Positions 17,991-36,521 of a DNA stretch of 48,019 bases are shown in pieces (the first letter of the stretch is position 1; every line of letters starts with the position of its first letter). The DNA is from Chitinophagaceae bacterium (GTDB lineage: Bacteria > Bacteroidota > Bacteroidia > Chitinophagales > Chitinophagaceae). The notes beneath the pieces are model-generated. The model was not told the DNA's origin. It made no database searches and saw only the letters and a list, made by a program, of their open reading frames with translations. Position numbers and translations under genes: made by a program. Location of the stretch: the NCBI GenBank assembly GCA_947379895.1, contig CANCPA010000007.1:1-48019 (forward strand). The letters are read 5' to 3'.

Positions 17991-18044
17991 TAAAATAAAA
18001 AGGGATTAGCTAATTAATTAATTGGTTAATCCCTTTTTATTTTA
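17991..18044. terminator. intrinsic terminator after the PUR-family gene
   Basis: An A-rich arm ending in AAAAAGGGATTA pairs with TTAATCCCTTTTT and a further T-rich run. The loop is short and AT-rich. It starts about 20 nt after the PUR stop at 17968. Confidence 0.85.
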
Positions 18045-18583
18045 GCTATTGATGGAATATTACAATGTACCAAGAAATAAGAGACACAAGGATTGAAAAT
18101 GAAACAACAGGGAATTAATCACAACGTTAAGAAGTTTTCAGAAATCTGGGTACTCGCTTTAGTATATAAAAGCGCTTTACGATTAGTTATGATGCACCTA
18201 GAAAAATTACTGTTAGAACTACCCTAACGTAACCTCTAAAATAAGGAAATAGTCACCGGAACGACAGAAATTCACATTAATGCTGTTAAACCACCCTAAT
18301 ATAAAATGCGAAGGGTGCAGAAAAGTTTTTCGCTTAATGAGTTTCTTGGAGACACAAAACTCGGAAGTCTGCCTTGCGGCGAGTTCTCACGCAGCGAAAA
18401 AATTTTATGCAACAATGCGAAATACAATGAATTTATTAAAACTAATTACACTCTTAAGTGAAGGCACCCTAGATTTTTAGAGCGCATGATTTTATCCTTC
18501 AAAAATTTCAAGAAAATCAAATATCATTCTGTCAAATAAAGCCAAACAAATGAAAGTGCAGAACATTGAATCATGTAACCAAA
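18045..18583. other. intergenic, contains one mobile element and no convincing gene
   Basis: About 540 bp between the PUR terminator and the 3' end of the flippase gene. Apart from the family B element at 18313-18413 I see no conserved coding region. The 66-codon frame at 18280-18480 runs through that element and is not supported. Confidence 0.6.
18313..18413. mobile_element. family B MITE-like element, short copy (101 bp, 8-bp target duplication)
   Basis: The left end GGGTGCAGAAAAGTTTTTC continues GCTTA and is nearly complementary to the right end (AGCGAAAAAATTTTATGCAAC). Perfect 8-bp direct repeats AATGCGAA flank it at 18305-18312 and 18414-18421. The ends match those of the 370-bp element at 35804-36173. 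The 55-bp interior holds small self-complementary stretches (GAGTTT/AAACTC, AACTCG/CGAGTT) and no coding sequence. Confidence 0.85.
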
Positions 18584-19933
18584 TTATGCTTTGTACCCAA
18601 AAAAAGGAGTTAAAATCTTTTGTATTATCAAATCCATACATTCCTTAAACCCAATAGTAAAAACATCTCGGAAAGAGTAATCTATATGTTTTTTTAATGC
18701 TACATATCCCACTAAGATACCTGTTAATAAAGTAATTGGAGAGGCAAAAGCAATACCATAAATACTCTTTGATATTGAAATTCCTACTAAATCGCTGACA
18801 ACACAAGCAAAAAGCATGATTAAAACCTTATAAAAGTTCATTTTTGGCATATGAATGATATCGAGTGTAACACCGTTAAACCTATCAATTGGATAAAATA
18901 TTGCCATCAACATAAAGAGTCTATATACATTTGGTGCCTCTGTATGAATGTATTTACCACCACCAAGCAAGCCAATTGCTAAATCGGCGAAGATGAACGC
19001 AAGGATTGCAATTGGAACAAAGACCCACGTAAGCATTCCTGAGTATTTTTTGAAAATTGCTGCCACCTTTCCCATGTCATTATTATTAAATGCTGCAGCC
19101 ATTCCCGACATTCCGGTTCCAACAAAACTACGGAGTGGTATTTCAATGATTTCCATCAATCTAGTTGGTAAAGTATAAACTGCTACCGCTGCAGGACCAA
19201 GAAAAAAATTGAGAATGAACGTATTTGTACTACTCAATAAATTAGAGCTTAAATTAGTTGCTAGACTATACTTTCCAAAGTTGGCAATTTCGATGATGGA
19301 TTTCCAACTACGATGAAAGAAAGTTTTATTTTTAGTTAGTCGAGCCGAATAAGCGGCGATACTAGTTAGACAATTGGTAAAGAAGTTAAAAAGCAAGAGG
19401 GTATGAAGGCTCATCTTGTTTAAATACATGAGTACAAGCACAATTAGAATCATTGAGCCACTGTTGATTAAACGAAGCCATAAAATGGGGATATAGCGCT
19501 CGTCGGCAACAAGAATCCAATATGCAATAGTGTATGGTAATGCACTAAATAAGGTGGGAGCAAACCAATGAATAGTAGCGATGGTGCTTGGATTAGCAAA
19601 ATAACCAACAAAAGGCAAGAAACATAAATCTATTAAAGTGAGTAAAGCGGTTACAGCTATTGCAAGAAACCAAATTGAACCTAAGACCTCTCTAGCCCTT
19701 TCTTGACCGGTGCCACTGTAAAACTTTACAGTAGCAGTAGAGAGAAAACCGTTTCGAATAGCATCGGCTAATCCATACACAGTTAAAAAGAAAAACCAAC
19801 TGCCTACTTGTACTTTATCAAGTGCTCGATAGATAAGTGACATCATCACAACACTAAATACTGATATGATGCCGTTTCCAACTAGTGCTAGAAAGTGTTT
19901 GTTTCGTAAAAGAGTTATATCCAAAATCCCCAT
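18584..19933 (-). CDS. Wzx-like polysaccharide flippase (MOP superfamily)
   Basis: The product has 449 residues with about 12 hydrophobic segments spread over its whole length, as in O-antigen or capsule flippases. LVGNGIISVFSVVMMSLIYR at the N-terminus and FGKYSLATNLSSNLLSSTNT in the middle follow the MOP pattern, in which the two halves resemble each other. Such proteins move undecaprenyl-linked sugar units across the inner membrane. It is divergent from an ATP-grasp gene 176 bp away. The exact substrate, and whether the protein is Wzx or a related oligosaccharide exporter, cannot be told. Confidence 0.85.
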   Translation of the reverse strand: MGILDITLLRNKHFLALVGNGIISVFSVVMMSLIYRALDKVQVGSWFFFLTVYGLADAIRNGFLSTATVKFYSGTGQERAREVLGSIWFLAIAVTALLTLIDLCFLPFVGYFANPSTIATIHWFAPTLFSALPYTIAYWILVADERYIPILWLRLINSGSMILIVLVLMYLNKMSLHTLLLFNFFTNCLTSIAAYSARLTKNKTFFHRSWKSIIEIANFGKYSLATNLSSNLLSSTNTFILNFFLGPAAVAVYTLPTRLMEIIEIPLRSFVGTGMSGMAAAFNNNDMGKVAAIFKKYSGMLTWVFVPIAILAFIFADLAIGLLGGGKYIHTEAPNVYRLFMLMAIFYPIDRFNGVTLDIIHMPKMNFYKVLIMLFACVVSDLVGISISKSIYGIAFASPITLLTGILVGYVALKKHIDYSFRDVFTIGFKECMDLIIQKILTPFFGYKA

Positions 19934-35737: not shown

Positions 35738-35769
35738 CAAAAGTAACTAAATTCAACTCTCATGCTTAA
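35738..35769 (-). promoter_or_regulatory. promoter of gldA
   Basis: On the minus strand, TACTTTTG (complement of 35738-35745) is a perfect -7 box, with TTTA (complement of 35766-35769) about 20 nt upstream. The leader before 35685 would be about 45 nt. Confidence 0.5.
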
Positions 35770-35830
35770 ATTGAAATTAATGTTGTATGTATTAAATAAA
35801 AAGGGGTGTATAAAAGTTTTTCGCTTACCA

Positions 35831-35866
35831 TTACTAAAATACATTATCACCAATGTATTTTAGTAA
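35831..35866. other. perfect 15-bp hairpin inside the family B element
   Basis: TTACTAAAATACATT (35831-35845) and its exact complement (35852-35866) enclose a 6-nt loop ATCACC. It begins 3 bp inside the left terminal repeat. Confidence 0.9.
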
Positions 35867-35938
35867 TAATTTCCACACAGCTAAATTTATAAAATAGCAT
35901 TTTTTAAAATTGTTTTTCTAGTACTCGCTTTCTCACCA

Positions 35939-36048
35939 GTCCTTACATAAGCCACCTTAGGGCAATCTGCTTTCAGCGAAGCTGAAATTGAGAAAAATTC
36001 GTAGAATATTTTTTCTCAAAAGGTTGAACGGAGTGGCGTTGTAAGGAC
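35939..36048. other. multibranched (cloverleaf-like) fold inside the family B element
   Basis: The outer stem GTCCTTACA (35939-35947) pairs perfectly with TGTAAGGAC (36040-36048) and continues after a small bulge as GCCAC/GTGGC (35951-35955 with 36033-36037). Inside are two hairpins: TTTCAGC-GAA-GCTGAAA (35971-35987), which contains the very stable GCGAAGC mini-hairpin, and a long TTGAGAAAAA.../...TTTTTTCTCAA hairpin (35988-36019). Whether it acts as DNA or RNA is unknown. Confidence 0.7.
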
Positions 36049-36268
36049 GAAGCCTGCCGGCTAAGAGGCAAAAAAATCGAATAAATCCATATTCTAATCG
36101 GTTTGAACTTTTAGCTTTCATAAATCGAATTTATTTAGGGCTAATATTTTAAGCGAAAAACTATTATGCACCCATAAAAAGTGATATGTTATACGTTTTA
36201 AACGTAGTGAGGTGCTTTCTAAATTTATAAAAGATGTCCACAGAGTTTCGTGTCCCAATAAACCTTTT

Positions 36269-36445
36269 AACCCAGATTACGCAATTGACACGTTTTGAAA
36301 TTCATAAATACAAAAAAAACAAGTTTTTATACAATTTTTTTGACTGAAGACATAATAAATTACGTTGAAGTCAAACAAATCAAGTAAAAGCCATGTTTGA
36401 AGTGGTTGTGAATTGTAATAATATCCTTTTGCGTAATCTATGCTT
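36269..36445 (+). mobile_element. family A MITE-like element, copy 2 (177 bp)
   Basis: The left end AACCCAGATTACGCAATTG is almost identical to copy 1. The right end is decayed (GCGTAATCTATGCTT). The interior aligns with copy 3 in the same orientation and with copy 1 in the opposite one. Its right edge directly meets a family B end (36445-36468). Confidence 0.85.
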
Positions 36446-36468
36446 AATTGAAAAACTTTTCTACACTC
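36445..36468 (-). repeat. solitary family B terminal repeat
   Basis: The minus strand reads GAGTGTAGAAAAGTTTTTC followed by AATTA, matching 20 of 24 positions of the family B end. No partner end was found to the left, so this is a relic or a broken element invaded by family A copy 2. Confidence 0.65.
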
Positions 36469-36521
36469 TTCAAACACATCTTATTATCAGTTTCCCTATC
36501 CTTCATTGTTAAGACTAACCA

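What the first reader, a model, noticed from the sequence alone, without database searches (positions are those of the whole stretch)
35796..36181. New MITE-like family B: GGGTG-ended inverted repeats with perfect 8-bp target duplications at two sites
Seen directly: the 370-bp element (35804-36173) is flanked by ATAAAAAG on both sides, and the 101-bp element (18313-18413) by AATGCGAA on both sides. Both share the end GGGTGYA...AAAAGTTTTTC. Different target duplications, the same ends and different interiors are strong evidence for movement in trans by an unseen transposase. Several known IS families make 8-bp duplications, but I do not assign one.
Basis: seen in the sequence. Interest (0 to 1): 0.75.

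Follow-up and report, generated by a model that had tools for sequence, protein, structure and literature searches.

The report
ISKra4-type MITEs, one carrying structured cargo
Two short DNA parasites in this bacterium share their ends with a transposon that probably moves them, and the larger one carries a folded sequence that sister species carry on a quite different transposon.

Summary
Both elements have GGGTG-type inverted ends and perfect 8-bp duplications (one right end is a base short). The end motif occurs 82 times in the genome, 0 in the reversed control. Of 43 paired elements 11 have exact 8-mers at both edges, against 0 of 1806 swapped pairs; samples from two sister species agree (7 of 18, 8 of 18). 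The 'unseen transposase' can be named: contigs C3 and C372 appear to flank one IS copy (duplication TTCCATAT) with the same ends and ISKra4-like coding sequence. So these are MITEs served in trans by an ISKra4-like IS, a new member of a known kind. The unexpected part is the 370-bp element's interior: a ~155-bp folded module (43 of 50 pairs with double-sided changes over 36 sequences, no relevant Rfam match), dispersed between genes in 18 of 149 genomes searched (own included), 10 genera, up to 16 copies. In sister species it often sits in another vehicle, with CAGGGCAAACGCAT ends, imperfect 9-10-bp duplications and an ISAs1-family parent (24 of 36 copies have such an end nearby). So one structured module has ridden two unrelated transposon chassis. 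Its function is unknown.

The parts
35796..35803 (.). target-site duplication, left copy (ATAAAAAG)
   Evidence: same 8-mer at 36174-36181; 0 of 1806 swapped pairs match
35804..35827 (+). left terminal inverted repeat GGGTGTATAAAAGTTTTTCGCTTA (ISKra4-type)
35830..35867 (.). perfect 16-bp stem with 6-nt loop inside the left arm
35875..35910 (+). left-arm stretch with weak similarity to the inner arm of ISAs1-type elements of sister species (approximate limits, from the alignment to L129)
   Evidence: shuffles reaching the score 0/200 (L129) and 1/200 (L146); the other five comparisons 7 to 106 of 200
35922..36080 (+). structured module ('core'), 159-position covariance model R1
36150..36173 (-). 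right terminal inverted repeat
36174..36181 (.). target-site duplication, right copy (ATAAAAAG)
18305..18312 (.). target-site duplication, left copy (AATGCGAA)
18313..18413 (+). 101-bp element of the ~102-bp MITE class, left end GGGTGCAGAAAAGTTTTTCGCTTA, right end one base short
18414..18421 (.). target-site duplication, right copy (AATGCGAA)

Best explanation
Both features are non-autonomous MITEs mobilised in trans by an ISKra4-like (Mutator-superfamily, 'p-MULT 4') insertion sequence of the same genome. The transposase is inferred to bind the shared GGGTGCATAAAAGTTTTTCGC ends and to insert with an 8-bp stagger, giving the 8-bp duplications (duplications shown; binding and catalysis inferred). 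The 370-bp class is a composite. Its centre derives from an element of a second MITE lineage that in sister species has CAGGGCAAACGCAT ends and 9-10-bp duplications and shares its ends with an ISAs1-family IS. That centre holds a ~155-bp module whose fold is kept by compensatory changes and which is scattered between genes in Chitinophagaceae. In this lineage it acquired ISKra4-type ends and spread again under the other transposase. Capture by insertion into a short ISKra4-type MITE is the simplest route; this is inferred, not shown.
For: Copies: 82 end matches, reversed control 0. Duplications: 11 of 43 exact at width 8, 0 to 2 of 43 at each other width from 2 to 12, swapped control 0 of 1806; G009 7 of 18 and G011 8 of 18 in the samples taken, swapped 0 of 306 each. 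Parent: C3 ends with TTCCATAT + the end + a 26-aa transposase N-terminus; C372 begins with a 41-aa transposase C-terminus + the end + TTCCATAT, each breaking 149 bp inside; C28 and C91 carry a related C-terminus (83% identical to C372's) beside the same end. Family: NF033572 E 3.3e-54 for the 346-aa frame of the G011 IS. Second vehicle; inverted ends above shuffles in 7 of 10 same-genus copies tested; 24 of 36 sister-genome module places have such an end (up to 3 mismatches) within 150 bp, 12 on both sides; complete IS with those ends, 1189 bp, 10-bp duplication TGGGGGCAAG, NF033564 ISAs1 E 9.1e-118. Module. The seven own-genome modules used, one of them at C97 with CAGGG/CCCTG remnants, form one clade, support 0.997.
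Against: The middle of the parental IS is not in the held contigs, and the C28 and C91 copies lack query residues 310-362, which in the G011 protein hold GSGAIES, so an active transposase in this genome is not shown. The ISKra4 model score (184.6 bits) is below its curated cut-off (205). 32 of 43 paired elements show no exact 8-mer at the unshifted edges (five of them match at 7 of 8). Second-vehicle duplications by eye: one exact at 9 bp, five with 8 or 9 of 10, one without. Remnants of ISAs1-type ends inside the 370-bp element are weak: six of seven right-arm comparisons scored no better than 44 or more of 200 shuffles. No copy of the ISKra4-type MITE with the same left arm but without the module was seen. 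The C97 branch is long and shares a replaced block with the 382-bp copy, so gene conversion is possible.
Confidence: 0.85

Rival explanations
1. The elements are ERIC/BOX-like intergenic palindromes kept for a regulatory role, not products of transposition.
For: Both lie between ORFs of 80 aa or more; both strands of the 370-bp element fold far better than shuffles, z -8.2 and -7.9.
Against: 8-bp duplications differing by site, width-specific, in three genomes; an IS with the same ends and duplication length; both insertions absent at the matching sites of G009.
Confidence: 0.04
2. The MITEs are moved by a transposase of another 8-bp family (IS1595, IS256, IS66 types) and only resemble the ISKra4-like ends.
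For: Several families give 8-bp duplications (recalled); MITEs share only about 22 terminal bases with the IS (by eye).
Against: The 21-base consensus is matched without mismatch at the IS ends of C3, C372, C28 and of G011 C7 and C75, with one mismatch in C91, each next to ISKra4-like coding sequence.
Confidence: 0.06
3. The module was captured from a free-standing copy (as seen in other genera) rather than from an ISAs1-type MITE.
For: No inverted vehicle ends above shuffles in 15 copies outside the main same-genus set, 13 of them from other genera; 12 of 36 sister-genome copies have no ISAs1-type end nearby; right-arm similarity is weak.
Against: Left-arm similarity (0/200 and 1/200 shuffles for two of seven comparisons); 76.5% identity over 243 bp with G002 L131, reaching beyond the module; the C97 copy of the same clade carries CAGGG/CCCTG-like ends.
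Confidence: 0.25
4. The covarying module is a single-stranded-DNA hairpin element (REP/PATE style, moved by a HUH transposase) rather than an RNA.
For: Few wobble pairs: 32 G-T against 1520 Watson-Crick cells after leaving out 3 pairs (98 against 1539 with them); either orientation to genes; no gene shared by more than two separate loci of 30.
Against: G-T exceeds A-C mispairs on the given strand (98 to 17, or 32 to 16), which leans to RNA; no recurrent partner gene of any kind was seen, and no search for HUH genes was made.
Confidence: 0.35

Closest known systems
ISKra4 / ISMich2 / ISAzba1 elements (p-MULT 4, PMC3942029; passages and section 11 read)
   Same: DDE transposase most like ISKra4; ends within the reported 18-39 bp with a terminal C; 8-bp duplications (reported 8 or 9).
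   Different: Score below NCBIfam's cut-off; in G011 two frames in a +1 relation, not the -1 reported for ISMich2; here mostly MITEs. The word MITE has 0 occurrences in that paper's main text.
ISAs1-family IS and its MITE-like derivatives in sister species
   Same: Transposase well above cut-off, CAGGG ends, 10-bp duplication at G001:C270.
   Different: Carries the same module in a different vehicle; in the window's genome I saw only one degenerate module copy with such ends (C97) and one weak end match elsewhere.
BrickBuilt and other MITEs of Porphyromonas gingivalis (PMC4596501; passages seen)
   Same: MITEs sharing ends with resident ISs but not interiors.
   Different: IS5-family ends; BrickBuilt's cargo is a minisatellite, not a covarying fold.
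ERIC, BOX and REP repeats
   Same: Short, folded, between genes, multi-copy (recalled; review PMC10969869 passages seen).
   Different: No sequence relation was tested; here a branched fold of about 155 nt.

Membership tests
MITE | short, non-coding, inverted ends, multi-copy | tested here: met
   101 and 370 bp; no ORF of 80 aa or more overlaps 35804-36173; 43 paired elements, 35 of 91-104 bp, 6 of 369-382 bp, one 148, one 688
MITE | target-site duplication | tested here: met
   11 of 43 exact 8-mers, swapped 0 of 1806
MITE | parental IS with the same ends | tested here: met
   contig pair C3/C372, middle missing; G011 C7/C75
MITE | mobilised by that transposase | not testable with these tools
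   needs an assay
ISKra4 family (parent) | transposase above NF033572 cut-off of 205 bits | tested here: not met
   184.6 bits, E 3.3e-54, for the 346-aa frame alone; own-genome 97-aa piece 23.8 bits, E 2.2e-5; 0 of 13 genus genomes over the cut-off
ISKra4 family (parent) | duplications of 8 or 9 bp, inverted ends of 18-39 bp with terminal C | tested here: met
   criteria from PMC3942029
ISMich2 subgroup | two ORFs joined by a -1 frameshift | tested here: not met
   two frames, relation +1, A9 run at the junction, one copy in G011
ISAs1 family (second vehicle's parent) | ISAs1 transposase over cut-off | tested here: met
   393 bits against 70
known structured RNA family | match to an Rfam model | tested here: not met
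   no match at gathering over the window; 8 matches up to E 10 on the element, all far below their gathering scores; none up to E 1 on 11 loci
structured RNA | compensatory base changes | tested here: met
   43 of 50 pairs, 279 cells, 0 of 500 shuffles, slid controls 22-54 cells (alignment fitted to the model); 10 of 50 pairs on the 11-sequence MAFFT alignment
structured RNA | transcribed | not testable with these tools
   no expression data

The most novel reading that the evidence does not exclude
The module is an undescribed functional nucleic-acid family of Chitinophagaceae (small RNA or single-strand hairpin) that persists by passing from one transposon vehicle to another: without visible vehicle ends in several genera, on ISAs1-type MITEs in sister species, on ISKra4-type MITEs here.
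Probability: 0.35. Interest if true: 0.75.

Novelty: new variant of a known kind. Interest (0 to 1): 0.5.

Why it matters
MITEs named with their parent IS are ordinary. A folded module kept by selection and found on two unrelated transposon chassis would show that MITEs can be interchangeable vehicles for a structured cargo. It makes a testable case of why some MITE interiors are conserved, and offers a candidate RNA family with a covariance model at hand.

Tried and rejected
Considered and rejected: parents of other 8-bp families (ISKra4-like C-termini lie beside the ends instead). The 688-bp C220 element as a full IS: no frame longer than 101 aa touches it (no homology search made). A conserved partner gene for the module: comparing ORFs of 30 loci with each other, two pairs of separate loci share a related ORF (L128/L152 and L133/L153) and none is shared by more, apart from frames inside the module and the overlapping loci L138/L154. 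Duplications around 26 module copies: no clear excess at any width from 3 to 9. Vehicle ends outside the main same-genus set: 0 of 15 above shuffles, one tie; but of these 15 the G011 copy does have one ISAs1-type end 54 bp to its left, so that test misses single ends. Exact empty sites: relatives are too diverged. Transposase piece in plasmids: no match. The genome-contig scan gave only two loci of one record set, that of G011. An exact overlap joining C323 to C91 was looked for and not found.

Literature: ISKra4+MITE gave 4 papers, one opened at passages (PMC9208149), three seen as listing only; Chitinophagaceae+structured RNA+covariation gave 0; the MITE review PMC10969869 has 0 occurrences of ISKra4 and ISAs1; PMC9769881 was seen as outline and abstract, PMC3281130 at passages. 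Other searches: (listings). Within these I saw no ISKra4-derived MITE and no description of the module; most subscription papers and ISfinder were not searched.

Full report
The observation. Element B1 (35804-36173) has 24-nt ends, 92% complementary, and ATAAAAAG on both sides. Element B2 (18313-18413) has AATGCGAA on both sides; its right end is one base shorter than the consensus. In the window the 21-nt end gives 5 matches with up to 3 mismatches against 0.02 expected. The fifth, at 36448-36468, is a degenerate extra end.

Copies and duplications. The window is contig C7 of a 5.32-Mb draft in 401 contigs; contig C401 has 3005 bp. The end occurs 39 times forward and 43 reverse, reversed control 0. 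I read 61 loci of the genome and paired ends 60-720 bp apart, one end with at most 3 and the other with at most 7 mismatches: 43 elements, and 18 unpaired ends with up to 3 mismatches, many at contig edges. Of the 43, 35 are 91-104 bp, 6 are 369-382 bp, one is 148 and one 688. Exact matches of the flanks at the unshifted edges: 11 of 43 at width 8; 0, 1, 2, 0, 1, 2 at widths 2 to 7; 1 at width 9 and 0 at 10 to 12. Left flanks set against right flanks of other elements: 0 of 1806. Five more match at 7 of 8. B2 is not among the 11, because its right edge is shifted by one. From G009 I took 20 places of the 102-bp class: 18 pairs, 7 exact. From G011, which has 222 end matches, I took 18 places: 18 pairs, 8 exact. 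Swapped controls are 0 of 306 each; widths 5-7 and 10-11 gave none, width 9 one in G009.

The parent. Contig C3 ends with flank TTCCATAT, the end, and 26 codons of a transposase N-terminus. Contig C372 starts with a transposase C-terminus, the end and TTCCATAT. Both break 149 bp inside. I read this as one IS copy whose repeated middle was lost from the assembly. C28 and C91 hold a related C-terminus beside the same end (one mismatch in C91), but their aligned stretches jump from query residue 309 to 363. The missing part holds GSGAIES in the G011 protein, by recall the catalytic glutamate motif. G011 is of the same genus and its contig is titled Chitinophagaceae bacterium C1_MAG_00011; that is the basis for naming the host's family. 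It has a 71-aa and a 346-aa frame, both ends, and an inferred IS length of 1291 bp from two contigs that overlap by 119 bp; their flanks differ, so they are not shown to be one copy. The 346-aa frame matches ISKra4 at E 3.3e-54, 184.6 bits, under the 205-bit cut-off; ISLre2 is second at 110.7. The reported features of p-MULT elements (PMC3942029, section 11), ends of 18-39 bp with a terminal C and duplications of 8 or 9 bp, are met. The -1 frameshift of the ISMich2 group is not: the two frames stand in a +1 relation.

Sister-species sites. In G009 the gene pair around B1 is kept (ABC ATPase 88%, the 950-aa protein 70-79% by stretch). Between the aligned flanks the window has 762 bp (35759-36520) and G009 59 bp; the right-hand match is weak, 66% over 97 bp, E 0.001. 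Around B2 the window has 556 bp (18043-18598) and G009 49 bp (alignment). Both elements are absent there, but so is other sequence, so these are not clean empty sites.

The cargo. Apart from matches to the ends alone, the B1 sequence matched sister genomes only within positions 115-287 (9 of 59 genomes had a match, its own included; G009 and G011 matched only at the ends). Eleven copies aligned at 91% mean identity fold into one consensus with 10 of 50 pairs showing double-sided change. The model R1 found it in 18 of 149 genomes, own included, 10 of 121 genera, 1 to 16 matches each, all in the same family. On 38 matches (36 distinct) from 36 loci that I chose, 94.9% of cells pair, 43 of 50 pairs have double-sided changes, 0 of 500 shuffles reach this, and slid partners give 16-21 such pairs. 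That alignment was fitted to the model and leans to it. In 30 loci the module lies between ORFs of 80 aa or more, in either orientation; in two of them a frame of 84-88 aa overlaps it. Related neighbour ORFs were shared by two pairs of separate loci only. Rfam gave nothing relevant. Wobble pairs are few, so RNA and single-strand DNA remain open.

The second vehicle. In sister genomes the module is often framed by CAGGGCAAACGCATATAAATTTA and its complement, about 264-276 bp in all (one measured 283 with some flank), with duplications that by eye are exact at 9 bp once, 8 or 9 of 10 five times, and absent once. Inverted ends exceed shuffles in 7 of 10 same-genus copies tested and 0 of 15 others, 2 of them also of the genus. 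These ends occur in 11 of 13 genus genomes, with one weak match in the window's genome. Setting the two lists side by side, 24 of 36 sister-genome module places have such an end within 150 bp, 12 on both sides. G001:C270 has a complete IS with these ends, 1189 bp, duplication TGGGGGCAAG, ISAs1 family. In the window's genome the copy at C97 keeps CAGGG- and CCCTG-like ends; the seven own-genome modules used form one clade, support 0.997. The 370-bp class is therefore best read as an ISAs1-lineage element that gained ISKra4-type ends. Arm remnants are weak.

Verdict. The travelling, covarying module on two unrelated vehicles is the part worth following.

Noticed in passing
window 36448-36468 (-): A third, degenerate copy of the end (3 mismatches) about 275 bp right of the 370-bp element; its partner was not found.
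   Followed up: partly
window 17991-18044: A long near-palindrome between genes, terminator-like, matching its own reverse complement at 93%.
   Followed up: no
G000 contigs C42, C61, C237, C312, C386, C252, C194: 102-103-bp elements whose inner flank is shared for 280 to 413 bp at about 96-98% identity while the outer flank varies: the MITE end is the outer border of a longer, unresolved repeat.
   Followed up: partly
G000 contigs C240, C363, C267: 104-bp elements next to a shared repeat that in C240 and C363 reaches a frame looking by recall like an IS200/IS605 Y1 transposase.
   Followed up: no
L015 837-1524 (G000:C220): 688-bp element with the same ends, a ~100-bp MITE at one end and an internal direct repeat seen by eye.
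   Followed up: no
G011 (222 end matches at up to 2 mismatches): A heavy load of these ends in one sister MAG, with size classes of about 92 and 215 bp among the 18 places taken.
   Followed up: partly
G040 loci L176-L191: Sixteen module copies, some sharing longer left flanks, and several with a replaced 3' helix: perhaps a third vehicle or subfamily.
   Followed up: partly
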